Part shown: positions 4,389 through 27,219 of the stretch, piece after piece
Position numbering within the stretch: position 1 is the first letter of the stretch
Layout: the number at the start of each line of letters is the position of its first letter
DNA from: a virus
Length of the DNA: 28,951 nucleotides
Virus record (IMG/VR): IMGVR_UViG_3300036715_001412
Location: 1-28,951 of that record
Reading direction: 5' to 3' (one strand)
Program-made: the position numbers and the translations under genes
The notes under the pieces: generated by a model
What the model saw: only the letters and a program-made list of their open reading frames with translations
Databases searched by the model: none
Told to the model about the DNA's origin: nothing

Positions 4389-6569
4389 ATGATTCCAACC
4401 TCAAATCCACAATCAAGCGCTCTTGTGCCAATCAGTCGTCAGTCGGTTGATTCGGGAATATCATTGGAAACTAGATTCAACGATTCTTCCAAAGACATCT
4501 ATTCAAAGTTTTCTGTGTATGATGCTGGTGGACATGGTTTCCACGTTGGTTTTCAACAACCTTACGTTTGGACCGGTTTGAATGATTCAAAGACTTGGAA
4601 GTATCTGAAAAAGTATGACAACACAACTTTTCCAGAAGGTTCTACAGTTCAAGACACCTTACGTGTCACGAAATTTATTGCTAGTGGTAGAGGAGCAACC
4701 TTTGCTGGCATACAGTTTCTTTTACAAAACCAAAATTCTTTTAACGAAACCCGAATTTGGAATCCAGCAAGTATCTTGTTTGGAACTGCTCAAAAGGGAT
4801 TACTTGGTTTAATAGACCGACCAAATAGACACATCGAAAGTTCGGGTGGAGGTATTTTTTCAACCATTTTAGATGGATTTTTAACCACTGTTGGTATTAA
4901 GACAAAAGCTATACTTGGAAAAACTGCTCCAAGTGGAACGGCTAAGATGGGACTGGAAGCTCTTTCGCTTGAAGCAAAAACAGGCGGAGGATGGGCGTCA
5001 AAAGGATTGTCACGATATGAGTCAGCGGTTAGTGGTCGTGATCGTTTTATCGCTAAATTTTCATCTGATGGTAAGAATCTTAAGGGACAAAGTGTTGTAT
5101 CAAATTTTCTCAGTTCTATTGGAAAATCGATTATTTCCAAAGTAACAAGCAAACTACCTACCACGAAAGGAAACACGGCAAATTGGGATTATCGGGTAGA
5201 ATATTCGGATACCATAAAGGTATTTGATGCGTTTAGAGCTGACAGAAGTGGATTATTGAAATCGAAAGTGGCGGGCGCTCAATATGAGGTCGTTGATATT
5301 CATCGTTACTACCCAACCGAAGATAAAACTACGTGGTATTTTGGTCCAGAAAAACAAGGAAAGAATCCACCACCTTCCACACTCGAAGGTCTCGCTTCTC
5401 AATTAGCATCACAAAAATACGATCCAACAGTTAATGTAGATGGAAAGAAATTGGGGAATCCACCAACAGTATCCGGACTTGTCACAAAGAAGGTTGTTGA
5501 CGATGTTATTGGAGAAGCTACAGTCAATCGCTTAAATGGAGCAATGGCTAAGTGGAATAGTAATACTTCATATGACAAGATTACAGACATCAACTTTTTC
5601 AAAGGTGGAGCAAAAACTTACAAAGAAGTTTCTGGTGTAAATAGCACCATTCCATCATACAGAAACTCGATAATCAATACCGGAGGTCTAATTGATTTTG
5701 CTGGTGGTAAGGATTTTGCCGCATCAAACAAAGCGGATGGTTATAATCAACTTCGCCCAATTTATTCTGTAGATGGAATTCCAGATGAGCTCCTCGACAA
5801 ATCAAAAGGAAACTCTAAAGATACCATCTTCTTTTATTTCTATGACCTCGTAAACAATGTTTACATTCCATTCCGAGCAACAGTCTCAGGACTTAATGAG
5901 AATAACAGCGTTGAGTGGGAAGATTTTCAATATATCGGACGAGCTGACAAGCTCTACATGTATAAAGGATTTACCCGAGAAATTAACTTCACGTTCTCAG
6001 TTTACGCAAACAGCATATCTGAAATGGAGCCAATGTGGGCTCGCATAAATTATCTATCCGGTTTGACTCGCCCAGCAAATTATACATCAGACGCTTCTGG
6101 ATTTAGTGAGTTCATCTATCCTCCAATGGTCACATTCCGACTTGGTGACTTATACATCGACCAACCATCCGTTATTAGAAGTTTTGGTTTCTCTATTCCA
6201 GATGATGCTGTGTGGGAGACATCGAGGACGGTTGGAGCTAAGTATAGTTACAAGAACGGTGCAATTTCATCAACGAAGAATGCCGCTCAACTACCGATGA
6301 AAGTAGATGTCACAATTGCGATGGCATTGTTAGAAAAAGAACGCTCTCAGACAAAATCATTGAGATATTTTGACAAGACTCTCCCAGGATTTAGCAATCC
6401 AAACGAAGTTTCTTCTCAGAGGGACATCAATAAGAAAGAGAAAAATTTGAAGAATATGGCGTATGTAAATTCCGCTTTCAAGTCAAACTCACCAGCTCCG
6501 ACACCAGCTCCAAACAGTTCATTTGGAACATTTCAGTCTATCCCAACATTTGGTCCGGGTGGAGGATAA
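4389..6569 (+). CDS. Virion structural protein, probable tail-tube cap/baseplate protein
   Basis: 726 residues, soluble, Gly/Ser/Lys-rich in the first two thirds. The C-terminal part (about residues 490-650) reads like a tail-tube-type domain: 'VEWEDFQYIGRADKLYMYKG', 'REINFTFSVYANSISEMEPM', 'WARINYLSGLTRPANYT', then 'YPPMVTFRLGDLYIDQPSVI'. In T4 the genes after the tape measure (48 and 54) encode tube-like proteins that cap the baseplate and start tube growth. Position here is the same, which is the main reason for the call. The C-terminus is Pro/Ser-rich (PAPTPAPN). The next gene starts three bases after the stop, so they share a late transcript. Exact T4 equivalent is uncertain. Confidence 0.55.
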   Translation: MIPTSNPQSSALVPISRQSVDSGISLETRFNDSSKDIYSKFSVYDAGGHGFHVGFQQPYVWTGLNDSKTWKYLKKYDNTTFPEGSTVQDTLRVTKFIASGRGATFAGIQFLLQNQNSFNETRIWNPASILFGTAQKGLLGLIDRPNRHIESSGGGIFSTILDGFLTTVGIKTKAILGKTAPSGTAKMGLEALSLEAKTGGGWASKGLSRYESAVSGRDRFIAKFSSDGKNLKGQSVVSNFLSSIGKSIISKVTSKLPTTKGNTANWDYRVEYSDTIKVFDAFRADRSGLLKSKVAGAQYEVVDIHRYYPTEDKTTWYFGPEKQGKNPPPSTLEGLASQLASQKYDPTVNVDGKKLGNPPTVSGLVTKKVVDDVIGEATVNRLNGAMAKWNSNTSYDKITDINFFKGGAKTYKEVSGVNSTIPSYRNSIINTGGLIDFAGGKDFAASNKADGYNQLRPIYSVDGIPDELLDKSKGNSKDTIFFYFYDLVNNVYIPFRATVSGLNENNSVEWEDFQYIGRADKLYMYKGFTREINFTFSVYANSISEMEPMWARINYLSGLTRPANYTSDASGFSEFIYPPMVTFRLGDLYIDQPSVIRSFGFSIPDDAVWETSRTVGAKYSYKNGAISSTKNAAQLPMKVDVTIAMALLEKERSQTKSLRYFDKTLPGFSNPNEVSSQRDINKKEKNLKNMAYVNSAFKSNSPAPTPAPNSSFGTFQSIPTFGPGGG

Positions 6570-6572
6570 TTT

Positions 6573-6869
6573 ATGAATCGTTATCAATCAAATCAAGTCT
6601 TCAATCGCTATGATGGAAAGCGTGTAATGACTACAACAACGTATCCGAGCATTCCTGTAACCGATGGAGATGTCTATATAATTGCGACAGCAGCTGATTA
6701 CCTCGACGTTCTTTCTTTGAGATATTATTCGGATTCATCATTTTGGTGGGTAATTGCTCAAGCCAATGGGTTAAAAGCAACCATGAAAGCTCCCGTAGGA
6801 ACACAGTTGAGAATACCGGCGAATCTACAGGGAATCTTAGCTCGCTTCAATTCAGAAAACTCGCAGTAA
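6573..6869 (+). CDS. LysM-like small baseplate protein (gp53-like)
   Basis: 98 residues. The core 'ADYLDVLSLRYYSDSSFWWV' followed by 'IAQANGLK' and 'PVGTQLRIP' is the pattern of LysM-like modules in phage and contractile-injection baseplates: a short helix, yYxdxxxWWxIaxaN, then a xG(x)xLxIP strand. T4 gp53 carries such a module and helps join baseplate wedges. It sits tightly between two large structural genes (three bases from the upstream stop, one base before the next ATG). The LysM-like fold is likely; identity with gp53 is inference. Confidence 0.55.
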   Translation: MNRYQSNQVFNRYDGKRVMTTTTYPSIPVTDGDVYIIATAADYLDVLSLRYYSDSSFWWVIAQANGLKATMKAPVGTQLRIPANLQGILARFNSENSQ

Positions 6870-6870
6870 A

Positions 6871-9141
6871 ATGGCTTCAGATTTAACAAAAATCAATCCT
6901 TGGGGTTTGCGACCAATTACTGGAAGTATTGTATCCGAACTTCGTAAGAGGGCCGGAGAATACGGTATGAAAACCGGCGTAGATAATTCTGGTCCAAGAA
7001 GTGCATGGATGCGAGTATGTTCTAATGGACTGTTTAACAAGAAATCTGGATTCATTTTGGGCAGTATTGACGGCTTCAGTGACACTTATGGCTTTGGTAA
7101 AAGTAGTATAACGAACAAAGAGAATACTACAACTCTCGGATATACCGTGTATGGAGAACCACACGAACTTAAAAACGACAATAGCTCCGTGTTTCCACAC
7201 CGTCCATCGCCAGGTGTCGTAGGTATTGAAACAGAATTTTTTGGAGCTGGTTCAGGATTCCCCGGCCTTTGCCGAAAAGCTACTATCAAATGGAGATGTA
7301 ATTCTATTGACCAGCTTGAATACATGTTCCCTTATTTTTCGAGTCCTGGAGTAAGTATGGTCATAGAATGGGGATGGAATAACTATGACCCAAGTTCTCT
7401 GATTGATTTGACGAATAAAGATAAGATAGTTGAAATGTTTACGGATTCTGGATTGATTTATGACAGGGTAATGAAGTCCAACGGAAATTATGATTGCCAT
7501 ATAGGAAAAATTTTTGATTATGCGATTACGATGAACGAAGCGGGTGGGTTTGAATGTTCTACGGTAGTAGCCAATCAAACAGCTTTGGTTGATGGCGTTT
7601 CATTAAACTCTATAGCGACCAAAAATGACGAAGCAAAAACTCAGCTTCAGTCGTTTAAAGATTTTATTTCAAAGAGTTTAGAAAAATTTGCCACATCCGT
7701 TCCAGAAGAATGCTTTTCAATAGATAAAAATGACGAGAGTCATAAATCAAAAATTTGGATTACAATGAATCGATTTCAAGAATTGGTTAACAAATATCTG
7801 TCATATTCTCAACCAACATCGGATGGAGCGAAAACCCATCAAATAATGAATTTTGATATTTCAAATTCGATAATTTCGGCCCATCCATTGCTAAAATCTA
7901 TCGATGAGAATGTCCTATTTCCAAATTCGTTTTCTCCTAATCTCGAAACATCGAGAGAGACATTTGCCGCTGTTTATGCTGCTACGAAAGCTTTGGATGA
8001 TAAGGCAAACAGAAGAATTGCTATAAATGTTAAAAATGGTGTAGATTCAAATAATATGGTCGTCGGCGCCAATGACAACGCTAAAAAATTCCAAGATACA
8101 TATAACAAGTTACATCCTACGGGAACACCATACACACAGAATTCTCAATATACCTCTCTATTCAAAGAATTCAGTAACAAATTCAAGGAACTCAATTTAG
8201 AGTTTACCTATGACGATTTGGATGTTGTTATAAATAACAAAAGAACTCCCGGAAAATTTTCATTCCCACAATTTACAGATTTGGGTTTAAACAAGTCCGG
8301 TTACTATGGGTATCTCAAAGACATTTACATTTCAACCGAAATGATTAAGAAAGCTGTGGATGATAACGACAGTGCTTTAAAACTAGTTGAACATATTCTT
8401 GGTTCAATATCCCACGCCGGTTCTGATATTTGGGAATTTAGAGTAGTTCCAAAAGATGCTGGCGACAATTCTACCTACGGTGTCGTAGATAATAATTACA
8501 ACGTAAATAATAAAGTCCCTGTATTTTGGGTCGGTTCTGCGAGTTCTGCTCATTTTACTGAATTGACGATGGATATTAAAATGAGCCAAGAAATGGCTAT
8601 GCAGGCAATTTTTGGCCAGTCCAAATACATCTACAGAGGAACAAGCTTAATTGAGCAAATTTCTACGGATAATAAGAATCCAACCATCACCAAAAACGAT
8701 AATAAAATTAGCATGTTTACCAGTGCCGATCGTTTATTTGGAAAGGCGTTTACCGGAGACTCAGAAAAAGAAACTGTTGACAGTGCAGTGAAGAAAATAC
8801 TCGAAAGAGGAAAAACAACAGATAGTCTCATCATAGGTAAGGGAAATCAAAAACACACGTTGACAGAATTTGATGCATCTTTAATGAGTTCTCTTGTGAA
8901 GACAGGAACCAAGGCTAGCTATTTAAGTTCTCCTATCATGTCAGGAACAGAAATCAATTTAACATGTCTTGGAATTGGTGGAATCAGATTCTTAGACATG
9001 TTTGCTCTTGAGAAGGTTCCGAGTCCTTACGCCAGTAAGAGAGCCATTTGGCAAGTTGAAGGAGTCAAGAACACTGTCGAAGGAAATATGTGGAAAACAA
9101 GCATAATGGCGCGCGTCCGACCAATTACAATAATTCCATGA
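6871..9141 (+). CDS. Large phage structural protein, probable tail/baseplate
   Basis: 756 residues without membrane segments or signal peptide. The N-terminal 200 residues contain WGLRPITGSIVSELRKRAG, GFPGLCRKATIKWRCNSIDQ and SSPGVSMVIEWGWNNYDP, a pattern I associate with baseplate/hub proteins of large environmental myophages (a beta-rich hub-like fold). The final part (GTEINLTCLGIGGIRFLDMF and KRAIWQVEGVKNTV) looks like another beta domain. The next gene overlaps the stop by ATGA, so the two are translationally coupled in the late operon. No enzymatic motif is visible. It may correspond functionally to T4 gp27 or another hub/wedge protein; I cannot decide. Confidence 0.5.
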   Translation: MASDLTKINPWGLRPITGSIVSELRKRAGEYGMKTGVDNSGPRSAWMRVCSNGLFNKKSGFILGSIDGFSDTYGFGKSSITNKENTTTLGYTVYGEPHELKNDNSSVFPHRPSPGVVGIETEFFGAGSGFPGLCRKATIKWRCNSIDQLEYMFPYFSSPGVSMVIEWGWNNYDPSSLIDLTNKDKIVEMFTDSGLIYDRVMKSNGNYDCHIGKIFDYAITMNEAGGFECSTVVANQTALVDGVSLNSIATKNDEAKTQLQSFKDFISKSLEKFATSVPEECFSIDKNDESHKSKIWITMNRFQELVNKYLSYSQPTSDGAKTHQIMNFDISNSIISAHPLLKSIDENVLFPNSFSPNLETSRETFAAVYAATKALDDKANRRIAINVKNGVDSNNMVVGANDNAKKFQDTYNKLHPTGTPYTQNSQYTSLFKEFSNKFKELNLEFTYDDLDVVINNKRTPGKFSFPQFTDLGLNKSGYYGYLKDIYISTEMIKKAVDDNDSALKLVEHILGSISHAGSDIWEFRVVPKDAGDNSTYGVVDNNYNVNNKVPVFWVGSASSAHFTELTMDIKMSQEMAMQAIFGQSKYIYRGTSLIEQISTDNKNPTITKNDNKISMFTSADRLFGKAFTGDSEKETVDSAVKKILERGKTTDSLIIGKGNQKHTLTEFDASLMSSLVKTGTKASYLSSPIMSGTEINLTCLGIGGIRFLDMFALEKVPSPYASKRAIWQVEGVKNTVEGNMWKTSIMARVRPITIIP

Positions 9142-12311: not shown

Positions 12312-12914
12312 ATGAATATTGACGGAATAGAAAATGAAACGTTGCCGCTTAGCGGCATATATGGACTTAGATGTAAATCTACAAATAAGTGGTATGTCGG
12401 CCAATCTACTGACGTTATGTATAGATGGAACAAGTATTACAAAAGATTAAATTGTAAAGGTCAAAGGAAATTATACAACGCTCTAAAAAAATACGGATAT
12501 AATAATTTTGATAAAATTGTCATAGAAAAATGCGATCCAATTGATTGGATAATGGGTTACAGAGAAATTTATTGGATAAAACATTTTAATTCTTTGATAG
12601 ATGGATACAATCTCAAAGAAGGAGGTTTGAATGGCGGAAAACACTCTAAAGAAACCAAAGATAAAATATCTAAATCAAAAATAGGAATAAAAATCTCAGA
12701 TGAAACAAAAGCTAAAATGTCTTTATCCAAAAGAGGGAAAAAATTTACAAAAGAACACAAAGATAAGTTATCGTTAGCAGCCAAGAAAAGAAAATCCCAT
12801 GTAGTTACGGTTGAAACTAGACTTAAAATGGGAAATTCTAGGAGAGGAAAAAAGCACTCAAACGAAACAAAAGCTAAAATATCGGCTTCAAATATAGCTT
12901 GGTGCAACAAATGA
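12312..12914 (+). CDS. Free-standing GIY-YIG homing endonuclease with NUMOD3 repeats
   Basis: 200 residues. The N-terminal catalytic module has GIY (15-17), YVG (28-30), a downstream Arg in DVMYRW, and the conserved Glu and Asn in YREIYWIKHFN and DGYNLKEGG. The C-terminal half consists of four NUMOD3-type DNA-binding repeats: GKHSKETKDKISKSKIG, IKISDETKAKMSLSKRG, KKFTKEHKDKLSLAAKK, KKHSNETKAKISASNIA. Such enzymes cut intron- or gene-free alleles and spread themselves. No split exon is visible on either side, so it appears free-standing, lying between a conserved phage gene and gp32. Its sequence is A-rich compared with gp32. It may recognise the nearby gp32 or upstream gene in relatives. Confidence 0.9.
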   Translation: MNIDGIENETLPLSGIYGLRCKSTNKWYVGQSTDVMYRWNKYYKRLNCKGQRKLYNALKKYGYNNFDKIVIEKCDPIDWIMGYREIYWIKHFNSLIDGYNLKEGGLNGGKHSKETKDKISKSKIGIKISDETKAKMSLSKRGKKFTKEHKDKLSLAAKKRKSHVVTVETRLKMGNSRRGKKHSNETKAKISASNIAWCNK

Positions 12915-13874: not shown

Positions 13875-13901
13875 AGCAGCGGCTGATTGACAGCCGCTGC
13901 T
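13875..13901 (+). promoter_or_regulatory. 10-bp inverted repeat around a TTGACA box upstream of uvsX
   Basis: AGCAGCGGCT (13875-13884) pairs perfectly with AGCCGCTGCT (13892-13901); the seven-base loop is GATTGAC. A TTGACA hexamer (13887-13892) overlaps the loop and lies 36 nt before the uvsX ATG, the same spacing as -35 boxes elsewhere here. The -10 is poor (TATTAA at 13913 gives a 20-nt spacer). The element could be a gp32 terminator with a weak T tract, an operator, or a leader hairpin. Confidence 0.45.
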
Positions 13902-13922
13902 TTACCTAACCCTATTAACACT

Positions 13923-14675
13923 ATGGCAGTTGACAAAGAAAAAAAGAAGAGAATTGAACATGAGATTTCTCCTGTTCAAGATGATTTGGCTAATTCCCTA
14001 AAGGAAACGCTAAATAAAGAAAACAAGGACAATGGACAAGTAGCGTTCTTCCTAACAGATTCGGAAGACCCTTCAAAGATTACCGATTGGATTTCCACCG
14101 GTGAACACTTGCTCGACCTTGCTATCGGCAACAGACCTAACGCTGGTTTGCCTGTTGGACGTATTACAGAATTAACGGGCTTGGAAGCATCGGGCAAGAG
14201 CTTGGTTGCTGCTCACTTGCTCGCAGATACACAAAAGAAAGGCGGCGTGGCCGTATTCATTGATACCGAATATGCTGTGTCTCCTGATTTCTTGTCTGCT
14301 ATCGGCGTTGATGTAAGTAAGATGCTTTACATTAACGTGAATACAGTTGAAGATATTTTCGATAACATTGAAACTATCGTCGCAAGTGTTCGCAAAGCAA
14401 ACAAGAATCGTCTCGTCACCATTGTCGTTGACTCTATCGCTGCTGCAAGCACGAAGAAAGAAATGGCTTCGGAACACGGTGCAGATGGTTACGCTACCGG
14501 TAAGGCTATCGCTATCAGTAAGGCAATGCGTAAAATCACTGAGTTAATCGCTCGGCAACGTATTTGTCTTGTTTTCACGAACCAACTTCGTCAGAAGATT
14601 GGGTTTGTTGGTTTGGGCGACCCTTGGTGCGTTGACCCAGTGACGACGAAGATAAAAATAAGATATAAGAAGTAA
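13923..14675 (+). CDS. uvsX: UvsX/RecA recombinase, N-terminal half fused to N-intein
   Basis: 250 residues from ATG 13923 (the in-frame TTG at 13887 lies in the leader hairpin). RecA-type ATPase with Walker A GLEASGKS (86-93), Walker B RLVTIVVDS (about 163-171), and the L1/L2 region ending NQLRQKIGFVGLGDPW (220-235). E. coli RecA at this point continues directly into TTGGNALKFYASVR. Here residue 236 is instead an intein Cys1 and the frame stops after CVDPVTTKIKIRYKK. The missing part, starting TTSGGKALAFHASVR, is encoded at 16146-16682. The split lies in the L2 DNA-binding region, so this piece alone should be inactive as a recombinase. Activity needs trans-splicing with the product of 15780-16685. 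Confidence 0.92.
   Translation: MAVDKEKKKRIEHEISPVQDDLANSLKETLNKENKDNGQVAFFLTDSEDPSKITDWISTGEHLLDLAIGNRPNAGLPVGRITELTGLEASGKSLVAAHLLADTQKKGGVAVFIDTEYAVSPDFLSAIGVDVSKMLYINVNTVEDIFDNIETIVASVRKANKNRLVTIVVDSIAAASTKKEMASEHGADGYATGKAIAISKAMRKITELIARQRICLVFTNQLRQKIGFVGLGDPWCVDPVTTKIKIRYKK
14628..14672 (+). other. Ultra-short N-intein of the split UvsX intein (15 residues)
   Basis: Encodes CVDPVTTKIKIRYKK: Cys1 followed by the CVDPxTxIxI start (block A) typical of phage inteins, then a stop. All later intein blocks lie on the other fragment. Most natural split inteins break after block B, giving N-parts of roughly 100 residues. A break after 15 residues is the rare 'atypical' split known from a few metagenomic phage inteins. 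Confidence 0.85.
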
Positions 14676-14678
14676 AAT

Positions 14679-14747
14679 TTGATGTTTTTCCGCCTGTTGT
14701 TATATATTTATCTAATATGAATACACTACAACAGGTGGAAACATCAA
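14679..14747 (+). promoter_or_regulatory. Long inverted repeat enclosing the start codon of the uvsX-break endonuclease
   Basis: Left arm 14679-14700 and right arm 14728-14747 pair over about 20 bp with one G-T pair and a two-base bulge (14685-14686); the core is CCTGTTGT/ACAACAGG. The 27-nt loop holds TATATATTTATC (14701-14712) and ATG 14717. Read-through RNA from uvsX would hide the start region. RNA begun at the box in the loop lacks the left arm and could be translated. This mirrors T4 I-TevI control. Confidence 0.65.
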
Positions 14748-15799
14748 TCGTCCTAAAATATTTTGATGTAAATATTAAAACAAAAGGAACAATTGTTACA
14801 CTAACGTTGAAAAATGAATATAAAATCGGAAAGGATGTTCCTGTTAAAAAGTTAAGAGAAAACGGGCAAAAAGTTATAGAAACAGGAATAAAATACTATC
14901 AACACTATCTTGGAACCATCGGCGATTCAGTTTATAATATCCGCAAGAAACTTTATAGTATGTATTCGCTTCTAAACTGGTCGTTGGAACTTCCAATATC
15001 CACTGAAAATAAATTATTGATACAAAATAGATTGGATGAAATGCATATCAACAATTCGGAAAAATTATTAAAACACTATGCATCGGACGTGGGGATGGAA
15101 ACAAAAAAGAAATTGTCCGACAGAAGTAAAAAATGGGCAAACATTATAGGAAATATTAATGCCACTAAATGGAAAAGTGAAGAATATAGAAAAAAAGAAA
15201 TGAGTAGAAGAACCGATACTCAACTTTATGAGAAATCCAAAAAAACTATGTTGCATAAATATAAAAATCCAACATATCGGAATAAAATGTTAGAAAAAGC
15301 AAACAAACCAGAGAGAAAACGGAAAATCAGCGATGCCGCAAAATCAATGTGGAAAAATGCTAAGGAAAATAATATTGAGTTATTTCGTAGAATGGTAAAT
15401 AGTTGCGGTGGCAAAAAGAACTTTGAGATAAATGGCATAAAAATGAATTCTATAGAATTTTTATTGGCACAAACTCTAAATGAACTCAATATAGAATGGA
15501 AGTATGGAGAGCCGATAAACATAGGAACTCAAACTTATATTCCAGATTTTATATTATTAGACAAAAAAATTATCGTGGAATGTAATGGGGATTATTGGCA
15601 TGCTACACCCAGATTATATGAAGCGGAAGATTTATTGAGAGATGGAATTATTGCCGGTGATGTATGGAAAAAAGACAAGAAACGGATTGACGATTTTAAG
15701 TCAGTCGGATACACTTGTTTAGTATTTTGGGAAAATGACATAACAAATAATTTAGACAAAATTAAACAACAAATACAATATGAATACAGAACAAAATAA
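14717..15799 (+). CDS. Vsr-like homing endonuclease in the uvsX break
   Basis: 360 residues. The C-terminal domain (about 245-350) is a Vsr/PD-(D/E)XK-type nuclease: NSIEFLLAQTLNEL, then YIPDFILLDKKIIVECNGDY (274-293) with D277, E288 and D292, WHATP with H295, and TCLVFWENDI. Residues 130-230 are Lys/Arg-rich, probably DNA-binding helices (SMWKNAK, MLEKANKPERKRK). This family was first described in genes broken by split inteins, between the two intein halves, which is where it sits. It should cut intein-free uvsX alleles. It starts 42 nt after the N-half stop and overlaps the C-half ORF by 20 bases. Strongly AT-rich against uvsX. Start uncertain because the ATG is in a hairpin loop without a Shine-Dalgarno sequence. 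Confidence 0.88.
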   Translation: MNTLQQVETSIVLKYFDVNIKTKGTIVTLTLKNEYKIGKDVPVKKLRENGQKVIETGIKYYQHYLGTIGDSVYNIRKKLYSMYSLLNWSLELPISTENKLLIQNRLDEMHINNSEKLLKHYASDVGMETKKKLSDRSKKWANIIGNINATKWKSEEYRKKEMSRRTDTQLYEKSKKTMLHKYKNPTYRNKMLEKANKPERKRKISDAAKSMWKNAKENNIELFRRMVNSCGGKKNFEINGIKMNSIEFLLAQTLNELNIEWKYGEPINIGTQTYIPDFILLDKKIIVECNGDYWHATPRLYEAEDLLRDGIIAGDVWKKDKKRIDDFKSVGYTCLVFWENDITNNLDKIKQQIQYEYRTK

Positions 15800-16145
15800 T
15801 CAATACATAGAAGAGGAAATTACTCTGGCGGAATTATCCGAGAGATTTCTTCTCAATAATGATTTTACAACCCCAAACGTTATTGATATATCCGATAGAG
15901 AATTAGAAGTTCTCACGGAAAATGGATATAAAAGAATTCTATCGTTTCTAGTCAAGCCAGAGGTAAAACAACATTACACAGACGGAAATTTGAGGGGAAC
16001 GTCCGAACATCGTATTGTAGAAAAAGGAATTGAGATTCCACTAAAGAACCATCCCGACTTCACTCTATCAGATAGTTCGATTAAGGTTGTTGATATTGAG
16101 GTTGATGGGGGAACCTATTTAGCCAATGGTCGGAATAATCACAAT
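15780..16145 (+). other. Long C-intein of the split UvsX intein (122 residues)
   Basis: Contains block B, RGTSEHRIV with the TxxH motif, and blocks F/G, KVVDIEVDGGTYLANGRNNH ending in Asn122 (codon 16143-16145). Thr+1 follows at 16146 as the acceptor nucleophile. There is no endonuclease domain, so with the 15-residue N-part the intein totals 137 residues, a mini-intein. The penultimate His and terminal Asn needed for cyclisation are present. Confidence 0.88.
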
Positions 16146-16685
16146 ACGACAAGTGGCGGTAAGGCTCTCGCTTTCCACGCTTCTGTTCGTATCAGGTTGA
16201 AGTCAACCGGACGTATCAAGGCCGGCGACCAGCCAATTGGTATTAAGACCAAGGCTATTGTCGTGAAGAATCGTATGGGACCACCGCTGAGAGGTTGTGA
16301 GTTCAATATCTTCTTCGACCGTGGTATTGACGCTTATGGAAGCTGGCTAGAAGCTCTTCTCAATGAGAAGGTCATTACCAATGCTAAAAAAGTCAAGGAA
16401 GACAAGCCGGTAAAGAAGACAGCTAAGCAGAAGGAAGAGGAAGCGGAGGAAGATAAGAAGGCGAAGTCTCTCCAAGTTCTTCTACCGCTTGGTGAAGGAA
16501 AGGAACCAGAACAGGTAACGTTTGAAAGGAAAGATTTCCCAACGTTGCTTGAACAACGAGCCGATGTAAGAGAATACCTCTACAATCAGCTCTGTGAGAT
16601 TTGTATTATGAAATACAAGTCACCAAACTCCACCCTCGAAGACGACATCAGCGATGATGACGAACAAGACGGTTTGGATGAGTAA
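15780..16685 (+). CDS. uvsX: C-intein fused to UvsX/RecA C-terminal half
   Basis: 301 residues. Residues 1-122 are the C-intein, ending in NGRNNHN. Residues 123-301 are the C-extein: TTSGGKALAFHASVRIRLKS, KTKAIVVKNRMGPPLRGCEF, IFFDRGIDAYGSWLEALL. This aligns step by step with E. coli RecA after its NPE site ([40 protein letters not shown]). A Lys/Glu-rich linker and a basic-acidic tail ending in EDDISDDDEQDGLDE follow. Joined to the 235-residue N-extein it gives a 414-residue recombinase, in the normal range for RecA/UvsX. The sequence changes from A-rich to balanced codons at the intein/extein border (16146). Confidence 0.92.
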   Translation: MNTEQNNQYIEEEITLAELSERFLLNNDFTTPNVIDISDRELEVLTENGYKRILSFLVKPEVKQHYTDGNLRGTSEHRIVEKGIEIPLKNHPDFTLSDSSIKVVDIEVDGGTYLANGRNNHNTTSGGKALAFHASVRIRLKSTGRIKAGDQPIGIKTKAIVVKNRMGPPLRGCEFNIFFDRGIDAYGSWLEALLNEKVITNAKKVKEDKPVKKTAKQKEEEAEEDKKAKSLQVLLPLGEGKEPEQVTFERKDFPTLLEQRADVREYLYNQLCEICIMKYKSPNSTLEDDISDDDEQDGLDE

Positions 16686-19330: not shown

Positions 19331-21106
19331 ATGTCAGAAAAAATTATATCAGAAGCCTTTATTGAAAAATATAAGAACAAAACGCCCAAATGGGGATTCA
19401 ACGGTTTGGGCTATATTGTTTATAAAAGAACCTATGCTCGACCAAAAGAAGATGGAACCACCGAAGAGTGGCATGAAACAGTTGGTCGTTGTGTAAATGG
19501 AGCACAGGCAATTGGGGCTAATTATACAAAGGAAGAAGCTGAGCGTCTTTATGACCTCGTATTCAATCTCAAGTGTAACTTCGCCGGACGCATGCTTTGG
19601 CAGTTGGGTGCTCCTACCGTGGCTCGTTACGGTGGTGCTTCACTCCTAAATTGCTGGTTTGTTTCCATGAATGACATTGAAGATTTCTGCTTTGTATTTG
19701 AAAATCTAATGTTAGGTGGTGGAGTAGGATTCTCAGTAAAGCGAGAAGATGTTCACGAACTACCAAAAATTATTCCAGGTGTAACAGTTAGTCACCAAAT
19801 GAGTAAGGACGCAGATTTTATTGTTCCCGACTCTCGTGAAGGTTGGGTAAGTCTCATTCGTAATCTCGTTCAATCTTTCTTTGTTACGGGAAAATCATTT
19901 ACTTATAGCACAATTCTTGTTCGTGGTTCCGGTGAAAAGATTTCAGGTTTCGGTGGAACAGCCTCCGGACCAAAAATTCTCGTAGAGGGAATGGACCAAA
20001 TTGTGAAAGTTCTGCAAGCTCGTGGTGGAAAGAAGTTACGTTCATTGGATGTCCTCGACATTAACAACATCATCGGTTCTATCGTAGTAGCAGGAAACGT
20101 CCGTCGCTCAGCTCAAATTGCTATCGGTGACCCAGATGACCATCTCTACATCCGCGCTAAGAATTGGAGTGAAGGTAATATCCCAAATTGGAGAAACAAG
20201 TCGAACAACTCAATTTACGCAGATTCATACTCTCATATTTCGAGAGACGTTTGGGAATCTGGTTTTGAACTCGACCCAACTACAGGTTATGCAAAGGGAG
20301 AGCCATATGGTTTCATCAATCTTCCGCTTTCTCAAAAGTATGGTCGATTGATTGACGGACCAATGAAGGAAAGCAAGCTGTATCCAACTGATAAGGATAA
20401 CTGTGAAGGTTACAACCCGTGTGCAGAAATTTCTTTGGGTGACGGCGAAGCTTGTAATCTATGCGAACTTTATTTAAACAACATTGATTCACAAGAAGAA
20501 CTCAATGAATGTGCAAGACTTCTTTACAAGACTCAGAAATGTATTTGGACTCTGCCGTTCCATTATAAGAAGACAAAAGACATCGTTAAGAAAAATATGA
20601 GAATTGGTCTCGGTGTGACTGGCGTATGTCAATCGATTGATAAGCTCGAATGGCTCGATAAGTGCTACAGAGAACTACGAAAGTTTGACAAGGAGTGGAG
20701 CAAGCAGCGCGGCTGGCCAGAAAGCATCAAATTAACTACGGTAAAGCCCAGTGGATGTGTTGTTCCACAGACAAAAATAAAAACCGATTCAGGAACAAAA
20801 TCGTTCATCGAAATATTTTCTGAGAATGGAATAGATTTGTCGGAGAAAATAAACGAACGACGGGAATGGTATGATGTAAAATCTCCAATAAACGTTATTG
20901 ACAGAAATGGAAATTATAAAAAAGTTACTAAACTATTTATAAACGGATTTGAGGAAACTATAAAATTGACATTTGATGATGGATTTGAAGTAGAATGCAC
21001 TCCAAACCATAAGTTTTTAATGTCCAACGGTGAGTGGAAATCTGCCAGAGACATATCAGAATCGGATGAATTCGATGAAAGATACTATAAAACCAACAAA
21101 AAATGA
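19331..21106 (+). CDS. nrdJ: Class II ribonucleotide reductase, N-terminal part fused to N-intein
   Basis: 591 residues: N-extein 1-475, N-intein 476-591. Adenosylcobalamin-dependent, monomeric NrdJ type: SLLNCWFV with redox Cys108, GGGVGFSV, 'VVAGNVRRSAQIAIGD', and the finger-loop NPCAEISL (N362, C364, E366) that carries the thiyl radical. It reduces ribonucleotides to deoxyribonucleotides for phage DNA synthesis and needs cobalamin, so the host must make or take up B12. The N-extein ends at TTVKPSG and the native continuation TLSLLGG is on the fragment at 22124. The second redox pair is also on that fragment, so this half should be inactive alone. Confidence 0.92.
   Translation: MSEKIISEAFIEKYKNKTPKWGFNGLGYIVYKRTYARPKEDGTTEEWHETVGRCVNGAQAIGANYTKEEAERLYDLVFNLKCNFAGRMLWQLGAPTVARYGGASLLNCWFVSMNDIEDFCFVFENLMLGGGVGFSVKREDVHELPKIIPGVTVSHQMSKDADFIVPDSREGWVSLIRNLVQSFFVTGKSFTYSTILVRGSGEKISGFGGTASGPKILVEGMDQIVKVLQARGGKKLRSLDVLDINNIIGSIVVAGNVRRSAQIAIGDPDDHLYIRAKNWSEGNIPNWRNKSNNSIYADSYSHISRDVWESGFELDPTTGYAKGEPYGFINLPLSQKYGRLIDGPMKESKLYPTDKDNCEGYNPCAEISLGDGEACNLCELYLNNIDSQEELNECARLLYKTQKCIWTLPFHYKKTKDIVKKNMRIGLGVTGVCQSIDKLEWLDKCYRELRKFDKEWSKQRGWPESIKLTTVKPSGCVVPQTKIKTDSGTKSFIEIFSENGIDLSEKINERREWYDVKSPINVIDRNGNYKKVTKLFINGFEETIKLTFDDGFEVECTPNHKFLMSNGEWKSARDISESDEFDERYYKTNKK
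20756..21103 (+). other. N-intein of the split NrdJ intein (116 residues)
   Basis: Begins with Cys1 (codon 20756-20758) in CVVPQTKIKTDSGTKSF and contains block B, EVECTPNHKFLMSNGEW with TxxH. It stops after ESDEFDERYYKTNKK, the normal break point of split inteins between blocks B and F. It is inserted exactly between Gly and Thr of the conserved KPSG/TLSLL loop near the NrdJ active site. Confidence 0.92.
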
Positions 21107-21123
21107 TAGTTTAACTGTAGTTC

Positions 21124-22149
21124 ATGCTTTTTATTGATATGGCAAGCGTAAAACAATCTTGGATAAATAAATTTGGAATAGAAGAGGGGTCCAAAAAATG
21201 GGAGGAGAGAAAACTTTTATCTGCCTGCACGTTATCATCATTTATAAAAAAATACGGAGATATTCCCGGAAAAGAAAGATACAATGAATGGAAAAATAAC
21301 TTATCCACATCAAGAACTCTGCCCGCCTACATTAAAAAGTATGGTGAGATAGAGGGAACCAAAAAATATAAAGAAAAAAACTCACATTTATCCATTTCCA
21401 CCCGCGCCCTAAAACTTTCGGGAAAAACAGACGATGATATAAAACTTATACAAAAAAAACACAGAGAGAGTTCCACTATAACGCTCGGAACACTTACGGA
21501 GAAATACGGAGATACTCTTGGTTCCAAAAAATGGAACGATAGAATATTTAATGCAAAAATATCGTCAAAAAGAAGTTTAGATTGCTGGATAAAAGAAATG
21601 GGCGGAGACATCGAAAAAGCAAAAATAGAACTATCAAACTATCAGAAAAGAGACAAAAAGTTTTATGTTGAAAAATACGGAGATATATCGGGAACAGAAA
21701 AATATGAATCTATTAAAAGAAAAAGATTTTTGGGTGGATTTATAGAACCATGTAGTAAATTTCAAAAAGAAATAGAAGATTTTATAACAGAGGTTGGTGT
21801 ATCGTGTATAGGGCACACATCACCAAAAATATTTTTCTTAGAAAGTGATGAGAGAAAAATTCACGGGCAGTCCATGTATATTCCCGATATAGTATTAAAA
21901 GATGTAAAGCTCATCGTTGAGTGTTTTGGTGACTACTGGCACTGCAACCCAATAAAATATAAACCGGAATTTTTTCATGAGGTGATAAAAAAGACAGCGA
22001 AAGAAATCCAAGAAAAAGATAACCGAAAATTGGAATACTATAAATCAAAAGGGTTTGACACCCTCATAATTTGGGAATACGATTGGAACACTAATAAAGA
22101 TTTTTACAAACAAAGGATGATAGATGAAATTAATAAAAAAAGAAGTTAA
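21124..22149 (+). CDS. Vsr-like homing endonuclease in the nrdJ break
   Basis: 341 residues from ATG 21124; ATG 21139 (MASVKQSW) is an equally good start. The C-terminal nuclease domain (about 205-335) has MYIPDIVLKDVKLIVECFGD (D255, E266, D270), YWHCNP with H273, and DTLIIWEYDW, the same catalytic pattern as the enzyme in the uvsX break. The N-terminal part has five copies of a K-(F/Y)-G-x-x-x-G-x-(K/E)-(K/R)-(W/Y) unit at residues 15, 42, 71, 126 and 183, probably DNA-recognition modules. It starts 17 nt after the N-half stop and overlaps the C-half by 26 bases. It should target intein-free nrdJ. Strongly AT-rich. Confidence 0.88.
   Translation: MLFIDMASVKQSWINKFGIEEGSKKWEERKLLSACTLSSFIKKYGDIPGKERYNEWKNNLSTSRTLPAYIKKYGEIEGTKKYKEKNSHLSISTRALKLSGKTDDDIKLIQKKHRESSTITLGTLTEKYGDTLGSKKWNDRIFNAKISSKRSLDCWIKEMGGDIEKAKIELSNYQKRDKKFYVEKYGDISGTEKYESIKRKRFLGGFIEPCSKFQKEIEDFITEVGVSCIGHTSPKIFFLESDERKIHGQSMYIPDIVLKDVKLIVECFGDYWHCNPIKYKPEFFHEVIKKTAKEIQEKDNRKLEYYKSKGFDTLIIWEYDWNTNKDFYKQRMIDEINKKRS
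22112..22117 (+). promoter_or_regulatory. Shine-Dalgarno sequence inside the endonuclease gene for the NrdJ C-half
   Basis: AAAGGA lies six bases before ATG 22124 and inside the coding region of the upstream endonuclease. Few genes in this window have such a site. It fixes the C-intein start and suggests translational coupling or independent initiation on the same mRNA. Confidence 0.6.
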
Positions 22150-22225
22150 GCAAAATTTTACGGTGGATTGCGAAGTCGAAGACACGCATTGCTATCAACT
22201 TGATAATGGAATTATAAGCCACAAC
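22124..22225 (+). other. C-intein of the split NrdJ intein (34 residues)
   Basis: Blocks F and G are seen as FTVDCEVEDTHCYQLDNGII and the end SHN, with penultimate His and terminal Asn (codon 22223-22225). Thr+1 follows at 22226. The length is normal for a canonical C-intein. With the 116-residue N-part the total is 150 residues, without any endonuclease domain. Confidence 0.92.
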
Positions 22226-22774
22226 ACCTTGAGTCTTCTCGGTGGTGCAACGCCAGGAGGGCACCCAGCATATGCTCAATACTACATCCGTCGAGTTGAA
22301 ATGTCTTCTACTGATAAGCTCGTCGCTATCTGTAAGGAGTTGGGTTATTCATCCGAATACAAGCTTGAATTGGATGGAACCTCAAGTAGAGATACAGTCA
22401 AAGTAAGTTTCCCTTGCTTCGCTGGGGATAATTTGATTCTCGCCAAGGACATTTCAGCAGTTAAGCAGCTCGAATTGAACAAGAAACTTCAACACATTTG
22501 GTCGGATAATTCTGTCTCAGTAACAATCTATTATAAGATTGAAGAATTGCCAGAAATTAAGAAATGGATGAAGGAAAACTACGAAGGTGGTTTGAAGACT
22601 GTTAGTTTCTTACTTCACGCTGGTCATGGATTCAAACAGGCTCCTTATGAAGAAATCACAAAGGAACGTTATTTGGAACTTATGAAGGACGTAAAACCAA
22701 TTGGTTCAAAATTGGAGATTTCTGGTGAAAACTTTAACGTTGAGTGCGACGGAGGTGCCTGCCCCATCAAATAG
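22124..22774 (+). CDS. nrdJ: C-intein fused to class II ribonucleotide reductase C-terminal part
   Basis: 216 residues: C-intein 1-34, C-extein 35-216. The C-extein starts TLSLLGGATPGGHPAYAQYY, which continues the N-extein's TTVKPSG, and includes YYIRRVEM and VSFPCFAGDN. It ends in VECDGGACPIK, the flexible C-terminal CxxxxC pair that re-reduces the active site in class II enzymes. Joined, the exteins give 657 residues, somewhat shorter than Lactobacillus RTPR (739). The gene uses a clear Shine-Dalgarno sequence. Composition changes from A-rich intein codons to balanced extein codons at 22226. A BFD-like Fe-S protein follows after 12 bases. Confidence 0.92.
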   Translation: MKLIKKEVKQNFTVDCEVEDTHCYQLDNGIISHNTLSLLGGATPGGHPAYAQYYIRRVEMSSTDKLVAICKELGYSSEYKLELDGTSSRDTVKVSFPCFAGDNLILAKDISAVKQLELNKKLQHIWSDNSVSVTIYYKIEELPEIKKWMKENYEGGLKTVSFLLHAGHGFKQAPYEEITKERYLELMKDVKPIGSKLEISGENFNVECDGGACPIK

Positions 22775-22786
22775 CATCCACAAGCC

Positions 22787-23002
22787 ATGTCCAATAAAGT
22801 AATGAAAACATTTGGTGGAATGGTCAACCATTGCACTTGTTTCAGAAAATCATTCAGAACTCTGAAAAATATCTGTCTCGCCAACGACCTAAAAACCGTT
22901 GACGATATAGTTAGAGAAACTAAATGTGGAAGCAAGTGTAAGTTGTGTATTCCATACATGCAAAAAATGTTAGATACTGGTAAGGTTGAATTCTTGCCAT
23001 GA
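22787..23002 (+). CDS. BFD-like [2Fe-2S] protein
   Basis: 71 residues. CTC (C16, C18) and KCGSKCKLC (C47, C51, C54) with following PY resemble the CxC...CxxC iron-sulfur pattern of bacterioferritin-associated ferredoxin and the BFD-like domains of nitrite reductase; the extra Cys is typical of related (2Fe-2S)-binding domains. It begins 12 bases after nrdJ and is probably on the same mRNA. A redox role, possibly electron supply or iron mobilisation for nucleotide metabolism, is suggested by position only. Confidence 0.7.
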   Translation: MSNKVMKTFGGMVNHCTCFRKSFRTLKNICLANDLKTVDDIVRETKCGSKCKLCIPYMQKMLDTGKVEFLP

Positions 23003-23154: not shown

Positions 23155-23961
23155 ATGACCAATTCCATTTCGTTTGTCGATACTTCCAAGCTTTACTTGC
23201 GAGAAATAAATCCGCAGATTGCTAAAGACATCATTGTGAAGAATCATTATTCTCATAAATGGAGCATGTGTTCAGTGGCGTTAGGTGTCTTTCAAAAAAA
23301 TTTACCGGACCCAAATAGTTTCTTCGATAACGATACCGAAAAGTTGATTGGTTGTATCGTTTATGGAAATCCGGTTGGTAGGTCAGCCGCAGCTTCTATT
23401 TCAACATCGTTGAAGATTGATGAAGTCTATGAACTCGTAAGACTTTGGATAGCCGACATGCCGCATTCGAAGAATATGGAAAGTTTTTGTATCGGTCAGT
23501 CTTTTCACTGGCTCAGAAAGAATCGACCAAAAATCAAAGCGTTGTTGAGTTACGCAGATAATGAGGCAGGGCACACCGGAATTATTTACCAAAGCACTAA
23601 TTGGCTCTATCAAGGTAATTCACAATTGGCTCTAATGCCCAATTACAGTCTGTCTTTGACTGGACCAGAAGAAGGTTATCAATGGATACACAGCCGAACT
23701 GTTTCCGAAAAATGGGGAAGCCATAATATCAATAATTTAAAGAAAATGATAGGTAAGACATTTTGGATGAAAAAAGAATCATCAAAACATCGCTACATCT
23801 ACATTTTATTGAAGGGTCAGAAGAGACAAGAGATTCTCGATAACCTCAAACACAAGACATATCCTTATCCAAAGGAAGACGTTCATTCTGATGAGATCAG
23901 TGAAGTCGTAGTCAATCCAGCAGATTTTAGCCCCAACACCGAACTATCACTTTTTGTATGA
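23155..23961 (+). CDS. Mom-like DNA modification protein (anti-restriction)
   Basis: 268 residues. Resembles phage Mu Mom and its GNAT-fold relatives: IVKNHYSHKW (27-36), ALGVFQ and KLIGCIVYGNPVGRSAAA, 'VYELVRLWIADMPHSKNMES', 'SFHWLRKNRPKIKALLSYAD', then NEAGHTGIIYQSTNWLYQG. Mu Mom adds a carbamoylmethyl group to adenine and so protects phage DNA from restriction. A similar role here is inference from the family. The C-terminal 70 residues are basic and may bind DNA. It has its own early-type promoter and overlaps a methyltransferase gene by ATGA, so the two are co-expressed. Confidence 0.78.
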   Translation: MTNSISFVDTSKLYLREINPQIAKDIIVKNHYSHKWSMCSVALGVFQKNLPDPNSFFDNDTEKLIGCIVYGNPVGRSAAASISTSLKIDEVYELVRLWIADMPHSKNMESFCIGQSFHWLRKNRPKIKALLSYADNEAGHTGIIYQSTNWLYQGNSQLALMPNYSLSLTGPEEGYQWIHSRTVSEKWGSHNINNLKKMIGKTFWMKKESSKHRYIYILLKGQKRQEILDNLKHKTYPYPKEDVHSDEISEVVVNPADFSPNTELSLFV

Positions 23962-24548
23962 ACCATTTTTTTGACGTAGGAGCCAATACCGGCCAAACAT
24001 TTGACAAGTTTCTTCTCAACACCAATGACTACGACGGTTGTAAAATATGGTGCTTCGAACCATCACCACGTAATATGAATGGACTTGTAGAGACTGCAAA
24101 GCGCGTCTCTGGCTGGGCTGAAAAGGGCGTCCATGACTTTGATGTGGTTGTGTGTCCTTTTGGGTTGTGGGATAAAGCAGGCACCCTCGGATTCTATGAG
24201 AAGAGCGATGCACTTGACCCTTACGGTAGGGAGAACGGTGAAGGTGACTCATTTAAGGAAAATTGGATTACTAACAATAAGGCCGGTTATAAAATCTATG
24301 CCTCAGTCGTTTCCACTTCTCAGTTCATCTTAGACAATACATCTGCCGATGATAGAATCACCATCAAACTCGATTGTGAGGGCGGAGAATACAAAATTTT
24401 AGAAGATTTATTGAAAAATTCCGATGTAATGAGAAGAATTCAGAAAATTTTTATCGAGTGGCACACCACAGATGAAGAGTATAAAAAGCAAGGTCTAATC
24501 GATGCCTTTAAGGAAGCTGGTGTTACTGTTGAACTTTGGCCATACTAG
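23958..24548 (+). CDS. FkbM-family methyltransferase
   Basis: 196 residues. SAM-binding motif I is FFDVGANTGQTF (4-15), followed by IWCFEPSP, VVVCPFGLWD, and ITIKLDCEGGEYKILEDLL (the D-x-E-G-x-E signature of FkbM proteins), then 'IQKIFIEWH'. FkbM enzymes are O-methyltransferases, mostly acting on sugars or small molecules. Coupled translation with the Mom-like gene (ATGA overlap) suggests a shared task, such as DNA-base decoration, or a cell-surface change; neither is shown. It is a complete domain of typical length. Confidence 0.8.
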   Translation: MNHFFDVGANTGQTFDKFLLNTNDYDGCKIWCFEPSPRNMNGLVETAKRVSGWAEKGVHDFDVVVCPFGLWDKAGTLGFYEKSDALDPYGRENGEGDSFKENWITNNKAGYKIYASVVSTSQFILDNTSADDRITIKLDCEGGEYKILEDLLKNSDVMRRIQKIFIEWHTTDEEYKKQGLIDAFKEAGVTVELWPY

Positions 24549-26451: not shown

Positions 26452-27219
26452 ATGAACCATACCCACATCCCTAAAAAATACGGTTGGAAACCAGATATTT
26501 CTGACCATCGTGATAGAATTTTTAAACTTGGTGGTGCTGACCTGAGCGCCTTACCGTGCAAGGTCGATTTGCGTCCAAAGTGCTCCGTAGTTGAGAACCA
26601 ATCGACTCTTGGCTCGTGCACCGCTAATTCAGTAGTGGGTGCTTTGGAATACCTCGAAATCATCGACGCAGACTTAACTAACAACGACAAAAATTTAAGT
26701 AGATTATTTGTTTACTACAATACCCGAGACCTTGAAGGGAATATAGACGTTGATAGTGGCGGTTCTCTTCGCTCTACCATTCAGGCTCTAGCCATCCACG
26801 GAACCTGTGACGAATTGTTGTGGCCGTATGATATTTCCAATTTTAAAACAAAACCCGCTGACGATATTTACGCAAGCGCCGACGAACACAAAATTACAGA
26901 TTATTCACGATTAAACGATTTGAGTGACATGTTGACCTGCTTGGCGTCCGGCTTTCCTTTTGTTTTTGGATTCTCAGTTTACTCCGCATTTGAAGATCCC
27001 GTAACTGCTCAAACAGGAATATTAAATCTTCCTAACGGCGATGAAACTTTTATGGGCGGTCATGCTGTATGCGCTGTTGGTTATGATATGGAAGCAAAAA
27101 CAGTTTTGATTAGGAACAGTTGGGGAGCAACATGGGGCCAAGATGGTTATTTCACCATGCCATTCGCATATATTTCAAATCCGGGATTGGCTGCCGACTT
27201 TTGGACTATCCGAAAATAA
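26452..27219 (+). CDS. Papain-like (C1A) cysteine peptidase
   Basis: 255 residues. The catalytic set is complete: oxyanion Gln50 and Cys56 in VENQSTLGSCTANSVVGALE, His204 in FMGGHAVCAVGYD, Asn222 in IRNSWGATWGQDGYF. There is no signal peptide and only a short N-terminal extension (PKKYGWKPDISDHRDRIFK), a layout seen in bacterial C1A peptidases of about 250-300 residues. A cytoplasmic or virion-associated protease is therefore likely. Possible tasks are cleavage of host proteins or capsid/tail maturation; the sequence does not decide. It lies in an accessory stretch with a PEP-CTERM protein and a decayed endonuclease, suggesting gene gain. Confidence 0.88.
   Translation: MNHTHIPKKYGWKPDISDHRDRIFKLGGADLSALPCKVDLRPKCSVVENQSTLGSCTANSVVGALEYLEIIDADLTNNDKNLSRLFVYYNTRDLEGNIDVDSGGSLRSTIQALAIHGTCDELLWPYDISNFKTKPADDIYASADEHKITDYSRLNDLSDMLTCLASGFPFVFGFSVYSAFEDPVTAQTGILNLPNGDETFMGGHAVCAVGYDMEAKTVLIRNSWGATWGQDGYFTMPFAYISNPGLAADFWTIRK

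What the first reader, a model, noticed from the sequence alone, without database searches (positions are those of the whole stretch)
19331..22774. Class II ribonucleotide reductase fractured by a canonical split intein
Seen: NrdJ N-half ends TTVKPSG then CVVPQTKIKTDSG...; the C-half starts with a 34-residue C-intein ending SHN and continues TLSLLGG. Block B (TPNHKF) is on the N-part, blocks F/G on the C-part. Known: KPSG/T of NrdJ is an established intein site. Inferred: dNTP synthesis in the infected cell needs protein trans-splicing. Redox Cys108, radical Cys364 and the C-terminal CxxxxC pair are divided between the halves, so neither can work alone.
Basis: partly seen in the sequence, partly recalled or inferred. 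Interest (0 to 1): 0.75.

Follow-up and report, generated by a model that had tools for sequence, protein, structure and literature searches.

The report
Phage nucleotide reductase split by intein
A phage's DNA-building-block enzyme is encoded in two pieces that almost certainly join themselves after translation by means of a split intein, with a selfish DNA-cutting gene sitting between the pieces; the arrangement is a known rarity, but relatives show this module moving between distant viral genes and leaving genes permanently split after the cutting gene decays.

Summary
nrdJ is a "fractured gene": NrdJ-N plus a 116-aa N-intein (19331-21106), a separate Vsr/EDxHD-type homing endonuclease ORF (21124-22149), then a 34-aa C-intein plus NrdJ-C (22124-22774). 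The joined exteins (657 aa) align end to end with the solved class II enzyme 1L1L, keep all five catalytic cysteines and pass the RTPR equivalog cut-off (371.6 against 340.05 bits), which neither half does. Intact relatives carry the same junction uninterrupted.

This is a new member of a known kind (Dassa 2009 fractured genes). Relatives add context. Sixteen HEG-bearing loci share the geometry, with the HEG stop overlapping or abutting the C-half start. HEG remnants (L060, L040) and a HEG-free locus (L039) remain split. Intein and extein histories clash: window and L042 share 29% of extein but 58% of intein residues, whereas L042 and L050 share 72% and 50%. So the split intein has moved laterally.

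The window's uvsX is fractured too, by an atypical split intein whose N-part is 15 aa. Its HEG start lies under a strong RNA hairpin, as in T4 homing endonucleases; the nrdJ HEG lacks a significant one. Splicing itself is inferred, not shown.

The parts
19331..20755 (+). N-extein of NrdJ (475 aa; C108, radical C364, C375)
   Evidence: aligns to 1L1L 2-478 and to intact viral NrdJ; ends TTVKPSG
20756..21106 (+). N-intein (116 aa, C1, block B TPNH) plus stop codon
   Evidence: TIGR01445 33.8 bits against cut-off 24.5; 62-68% identical to the N-intein at the same site in L010, L039, L040
21107..21138 (+). gap before the homing endonuclease; degenerate T-rich box (TTTTTATTG), no significant hairpin here
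   Evidence: z = +1.0 at this locus; relatives L042, L044, L049, L050, L117, L120 have z of -4 to -6
21124..22149 (+). Vsr/EDxHD-type homing endonuclease (341 aa; likely true start ATG 21139); N-terminal KYG..G..KY repeats, C-terminal Vsr-like nuclease
   Evidence: TIGR00632 vsr E=7e-6; phrog_22677 and phrog_3339 homing endonuclease; Foldseek prob 1.00 to Vsr 1cw0 and to I-Bth0305I 3r3p; dN 0.35 against dS about 1.9
22124..22225 (+). C-intein (34 aa, ends SHN); its first 26 nt overlap the end of the homing endonuclease gene; AAAGGA ribosome-site-like sequence upstream
   Evidence: 82% identical to L010 over 28 aa
22226..22774 (+). C-extein of NrdJ (182 aa; starts with +1 Thr, C649/C654 CxxxxC tail) plus stop
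   Evidence: aligns to 1L1L to its last residue

Best explanation
A phage nrdJ gene (monomeric, adenosylcobalamin-dependent class II RNR, RTPR type) is interrupted at the codon boundary KPSG|T by a split-intein mobile element: N-intein, homing endonuclease gene, C-intein. Both halves and the nuclease are translated separately from one operon. The 116-aa and 34-aa intein fragments associate, splice in trans (C1 and +1 Thr as nucleophiles, terminal Asn cyclising) and release a seamless 657-aa RNR. The Vsr-type endonuclease presumably cuts intein-free nrdJ alleles at or near KPSG|T in co-infecting phages, so that repair copies the element. Because the gene is split, the nuclease has its own start and can be timed independently of the RNR, and its 3' end overlaps the C-half start. 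Shown: the sequence architecture, conservation of the motifs, empty and occupied alleles, lateral movement of the intein (tree conflict), nuclease decay with the split retained. Inferred: splicing, endonuclease cutting, timing.
For: Joined exteins score 371.6 bits for RTPR (cut-off 340.05) against 259.8 and 92.7 for the halves and align over the whole of 1L1L with all five catalytic Cys. Intact alleles L002, L005-L009 run through the site without a gap. Sixteen Vsr-type-HEG-bearing loci at homologous RNR sites (KPSG|T, KPEG|T, APTG|T/S and similar) share the architecture. The HEG stop overlaps the C-half start by 1-32 nt in 15 and abuts it in 1. The intein's C1, TxxH, HN and +1 T are invariant among close relatives. 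The HEG folds like Vsr and I-Bth0305I and is under purifying selection against L010. Mobility: the extein tree groups L042/L044 with L049/L050/L117/L120 and the intein tree with the window group, both with starred support. Identities are window-L042 extein 29%, intein 58%; L042-L050 extein 72%, intein 50%.
Against: No splicing or cleavage was or could be measured. intein_Cterm is just below its cut-off. The window record is a fragment, so another RNR cannot be excluded. dS values near saturation make the selection estimate rough. The intein data alone do not reject the extein topology within the close group (p-AU 0.226), so recent gain by the window lineage, as against loss in L003, is not settled.
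Confidence: 0.9

Rival explanations
1. The two RNR halves do not splice; they assemble non-covalently into an active enzyme, as the Aeh1 NrdA split by mobE does.
For: Precedent of a functional genes-in-pieces RNR (PMC2988022).
Against: The break lies inside an intein with intact catalytic residues, not at a bare insertion. Unspliced halves would carry 116-aa and 34-aa appendages at the PSG|T loop. Intein residues are conserved across divergent hosts (40-74% identity), which a dead intein would not keep.
Confidence: 0.06
2. Decaying gene: nrdJ is being lost, the pieces are a pseudogene, and the phage relies on the host RNR.
For: Campylobacter phage nrdA genes with inteins have been described as degenerating (PMC3653736).
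Against: All catalytic Cys are kept, both exteins are open and alignable end to end, the arrangement is shared by 16 loci, and substitutions in both exteins and intein are mostly synonymous.
Confidence: 0.03
3. Assembly or sequencing artefact: one contiguous intein with an internal nuclease domain, broken by frame errors.
For: N- and C-halves lie in the same frame and the nuclease in another.
Against: Independent contigs (L010, L011, L042, L044, L049, L050, L117, L120, L122, LR756500) show the same stop, gap and overlap with their own start codons.
Confidence: 0.01
4. The split is kept for the phage's own benefit (for example delayed or conditional RNR activation by trans-splicing) rather than as a by-product of a selfish nuclease.
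For: The gene stays split after nuclease loss or decay in L039, L040 and L060.
Against: Close relatives do without it (L002, L003, L008) and a contiguous version exists (L048). Staying split after nuclease loss is also expected simply because rejoining needs a precise deletion.
Confidence: 0.1

Closest known systems
Fractured genes with split inteins and Vsr-type homing endonucleases (Dassa et al. 2009, doi 10.1093/nar/gkp095; cited in PMC3653736 and PMC12350094)
   Same: Host gene split into two ORFs, each carrying one part of a split intein, with a free-standing Vsr-like nuclease gene between; nrdJ is among the genes reported there (2 nrdJ cases according to PMC3653736)
   Different: The paper itself was not held, so whether KPSG|T is one of its sites could not be checked. 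NrdJ-1-like inteins in L003, L011 and L039 sit at another site, NP|C. The HEG/C-half overlap, start hairpins, decay series and tree conflict come from this analysis.
I-Bth0305I (PDB 3r3p), EDxHD homing endonuclease
   Same: C-terminal domain of the nrdJ nuclease matches it (Foldseek prob 1.00, TM by target 0.70)
   Different: I-Bth0305I is a group I intron enzyme (PMC3943268); this one lies between intein halves and has KYG-type helical repeats as presumed DNA-binding array
Aeh1 nrdA split by mobE; T4 I-TevI, I-TevII, I-TevIII and segB regulation (PMC2988022)
   Same: Phage RNR gene split around a homing endonuclease; T4-type start hairpin with internal late promoter is seen for many fractured-gene nucleases here, including uvsX in the window
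   Different: Aeh1 NrdA has no intein and works as unligated pieces; the nrdJ nuclease in the window has no significant hairpin
VidaL / PolB16 atypically split inteins (PMC13014065)
   Same: The window's uvsX intein is split very early, N-part 15 aa, within the reported natural range of 15-37 aa
   Different: Not the nrdJ intein; a contiguous counterpart of the same uvsX intein exists in L194/L195

Membership tests
Fractured gene (split intein plus free-standing nuclease) | Host gene in two ORFs whose exteins join seamlessly at a site that is uninterrupted in relatives | tested here: met
   ExtN ends and ExtC begins at adjacent bases in L002, L005-L009
Fractured gene (split intein plus free-standing nuclease) | Endonuclease ORF between the intein halves with its own start | tested here: met
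   ORF 21124-22149, vsr E=7e-6
Canonically split class 1 intein | Cys1, block B TxxH, terminal HN, +1 C/S/T, split between blocks B and F | tested here: met
   C1, TPNH, SHN, +1 T; 116 + 34 aa
Canonically split class 1 intein | Splices in trans | not testable with these tools
   needs expressed halves
Class II RNR, RTPR type (TIGR02505) | Passes the curated cut-off when joined; B12-binding insertion domain; catalytic Cys set | tested here: met
   371.6 against 340.05; PF21995 41.4 against 27; Cys aligned to 1L1L
Class II RNR, RTPR type (TIGR02505) | Adenosylcobalamin dependence and activity | not testable with these tools
   needs enzyme assay
EDxHD/Vsr homing endonuclease | Vsr-like catalytic fold with PD...GDYWH...D residues | tested here: met
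   D250, G264, W267, H268 invariant, D294 nearly so; prob 1.00 to 1cw0 and 3r3p
EDxHD/Vsr homing endonuclease | Cuts an intein-free allele near the insertion site | not testable with these tools
   needs cleavage assay
T4-type hairpin plus late-promoter control of the nuclease | Stable hairpin over the nuclease start or ribosome site | tested here: not met
   z = +1.0 for the window nrdJ nuclease (met for 13 of 19 related nucleases, including the window's uvsX nuclease, z = -8.9)

The most novel reading that the evidence does not exclude
Split inteins in phage RNR genes behave as a mobile, self-regulating module with a visible life cycle at one site: empty allele; invasion by N-intein, nuclease and C-intein; nuclease decay (L060, L040) or absence (L039); permanently split gene. 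Related nucleases sit under T4-like start hairpins with a sense-strand TATTTATA promoter box, and the nuclease stop overlaps the C-half start. This would be a directly observed route by which nuclease-free natural split inteins arise.
Probability: 0.5. Interest if true: 0.6.

Novelty: new member of a known kind. Interest (0 to 1): 0.42.

Why it matters
The locus itself extends a known but rare architecture. Its relatives give a series of states at one insertion site, which makes two open questions testable: how split inteins arise and persist, and whether a split gene's nuclease is timed separately from its host gene. The split inteins are also new candidates for protein-ligation tools, including a uvsX intein with a 15-aa N-part and a contiguous sister for comparison.

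Tried and rejected
Intron instead of intein: no Rfam match at gathering threshold in the window, none meaningful at E<=1 around the locus. Cellular origin of the intein: the genome-contig scan gave only four distant partial matches. Obligatory translational coupling of the C-half to the nuclease: not concluded, because the window C-half has an AAAGGA upstream. T4-type hairpin control at the window nrdJ nuclease: tested, not significant. HEG footprint in L039: upstream part not above shuffles (218 of 1000), so only suggestive; L040 is modest (8 of 1000), L060 clear (0 of 1000). Formal test that the intein alone groups the window with L040 against the extein order: not significant within the close group (p-AU 0.226).
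Full report
What is there. The window is the whole 28,951-base linear virus record, with T4-like content: baseplate proteins, single-strand binding protein, UvsX, exonuclease, DnaB/gp41-like helicase and a family A DNA polymerase. At 19331-22774 three ORFs lie in a row on the + strand. ORF 1 is NrdJ residues 1-475 followed by a 116-aa N-intein starting at Cys (KPSG|CVVPQT). ORF 3 is a 34-aa C-intein (ending SHN) followed by NrdJ residues 476-657.

Extein identity. Joined, the exteins align with Lactobacillus leichmannii ribonucleoside triphosphate reductase (1L1L) from residue 2 to its last residue. They keep the redox pair C108/C375, the radical C364 and the C-terminal pair C649/C654. The joined protein passes the NCBIfam RTPR cut-off (371.6 against 340.05 bits); the halves alone score 259.8 and 92.7. 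The three active-site cysteines are all on the N-half; the C-half supplies the end of the barrel and the CxxxxC tail.

Intein. NCBIfam intein_Nterm matches above its cut-off (32.4 bits in the protein, 33.8 on the isolated intein; cut-off 24.5), intein_Cterm just below its own. Solved relatives are mini-inteins such as gp41-1 and DnaE. C1, TPNH, HN and +1 Thr are invariant among the nearest relatives at the site. The split lies between blocks B and F, the canonical place. Splicing itself is inferred.

Nuclease. ORF 2 matches DNA mismatch endonuclease Vsr (E=7e-6, residues 252-319) and PHROGs homing endonuclease families. An AlphaFold2 model from 15 family members (mean pLDDT 84) matches Vsr (1cw0, 1vsr) and the EDxHD homing endonuclease I-Bth0305I (3r3p) with Foldseek probability 1.00. 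The N-terminal 200 residues are helical hairpins built on repeated K-[YF]-G-x(3)-G-x(2)-[KR]-[YW] motifs, presumably the DNA-reading array. Against L010 the nuclease has dN 0.35 and dS about 1.9, so it looks functional, with the caveat that dS is near saturation.

Relatives and states of the site. Scans of IMG/VR with the N-extein, the nuclease and the N-intein, and tblastn of INPHARED, give these states at homologous RNR sites. Empty: L002, L003, L005-L009. Occupied with a Vsr-type nuclease: the window, L010, L011, L037 (LR756500.1), L042, L044, L049, L050, L115, L117, L120-L123, L131, L138. Occupied with an HNH nuclease instead: L047. Split with only nuclease remnants: L060 (clear, 0 of 1000 shuffles reach the score) and L040 (8 of 1000). 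Split with no recognisable nuclease: L039 (its upstream footprint is not significant, 218 of 1000). Contiguous: L048. The nuclease stop overlaps the C-half start by 1-32 nt in 15 of the 16 Vsr-type loci and abuts it in the other, whereas the gap after the N-half stop is always positive. No close cellular relative was found.

Mobility. In the extein tree (22 rows) the window pairs with the empty L003 (100/99), and L042/L044 sit with L049, L050, L117, L120 and L131. In the intein tree L042/L044 instead join the window group, on starred branches. The identities say the same: window-L042 extein 29%, intein 58%, nuclease 38%; L042-L050 extein 72%, intein 50%, nuclease 31%. Different rates cannot produce both inequalities, so the intein has moved laterally between divergent RNR genes at one homologous site. 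Within the close group the extein data reject grouping the window with L010/L039/L040 (p-AU 0.0005), but the intein data do not reject the extein order (p-AU 0.226). Whether the window lineage gained it recently or L003 lost it is therefore open.

Regulation. Between the N-half stop and the nuclease start many loci carry an inverted repeat that covers the ribosome site or encloses the start codon. In native geometry 13 of 19 nucleases have folding z <= -3.4. In fixed geometry it is 8 of 18 nucleases against 7 of 143 other ORFs from the same loci. The loops contain TATTTAT(A), a box that peaks 10-40 bases upstream of other ORFs in these phages on the sense strand. In the window it stands upstream of 1570, 4389, 10993, 24595 and the uvsX nuclease. 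This is the layout known for I-TevI, I-TevII, I-TevIII, segB and Aeh1 mobE (PMC2988022). The window's nrdJ nuclease does not have it (z = +1.0); the window's uvsX nuclease has the strongest case (z = -8.9).

Second fractured gene. uvsX is also in three ORFs: the N-part to 14675 (N-intein CVDPVTTKIKIRYKK, 15 aa), a Vsr-type nuclease 14717-15799 (41% identical to the nrdJ one over 86 aa), and the C-part 15780-16685 (122-aa C-intein ending NNHN|TTSGG). L194/L195 hold the same intein, 69% identical, uncut within one uvsX ORF, so the atypical split coincides with the nuclease position. Natural atypical split inteins have N-parts of 15-37 aa (PMC13014065).

Need for splicing. Twelve related records (up to 462 kb) have no class I small subunit (PF00268) and no class III RNR (PF13597), so these phages probably depend on the fractured enzyme unless the host supplies RNR. 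For the window's own genome this cannot be decided from a fragment.

Known or new. The arrangement was described as fractured genes by Dassa et al. 2009, which the library does not hold. PMC3653736 reports that it included two nrdJ cases, and PMC12350094 cites it for the EDxHD/Vsr nuclease domain. I therefore file the finding as a new member of a known kind. The life-cycle series, the tree conflict and the hairpins are my additions; whether any was noted in that paper I could not check.

Noticed in passing
window 13887-16685: uvsX (RecA-like) is also fractured: 15-aa N-intein, Vsr-type nuclease 14717-15799, 122-aa C-intein; nuclease overlaps the C-part by 20 nt; hairpin over the nuclease start z = -8.9. 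The listed TTG start 13887 lies in a terminator-like hairpin; ATG 13923 is more likely.
   Followed up: yes
L194 2840-4879; L195 1758-3797: Contiguous version of the same uvsX intein (69% identical), plus a second contiguous intein in the UvsX P-loop; L194 gp41 also has a contiguous intein in its P-loop.
   Followed up: partly
L011 2668-6652; L039 3419-7028: RNR in three pieces: the middle polypeptide has a C-intein at its start and an N-intein at its end, so two trans-splicing reactions would be needed.
   Followed up: partly
L003 7582-8230; L011 3646; L039 4500-5660: Split intein at NP|C: the catalytic radical cysteine itself is the +1 residue of the intein.
   Followed up: partly
window 1552, 4354, 10944, 14705, 24574: TATTTAT(A) box on the sense strand just upstream of ORFs, positionally enriched in related phages; candidate late promoter, the reverse complement of the T4 TATAAATA.
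   Followed up: partly
window 12312-12914: Free-standing GIY-YIG/NUMOD3 homing endonuclease.
   Followed up: no
window 22787-23002: BFD-like [2Fe-2S] small protein directly downstream of nrdJ; possible electron-transfer partner, untested.
   Followed up: no
window 23155-24548; 26452-27219: Mom-like DNA modification protein, FkbM methyltransferase and a papain-family cysteine protease.
   Followed up: no
L038 (Campylobacter phage CP21) 1602-5710: T4 gp43-like DNA polymerase annotated in several pieces with a Vsr-type nuclease relative (CP21_248) between them; may be another fractured gene.
   Followed up: no
L037 (LR756500.1) 4504-8675: Unannotated 462-kb phage record with a fractured class II RNR at APTG|T and a Vsr-type nuclease.
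   Followed up: partly
L039 4823-5590; L047 6550-7278: Other nuclease families in the same kind of slot: phage endonuclease I-like at NP|C, HNH at KPSG|S.
   Followed up: partly
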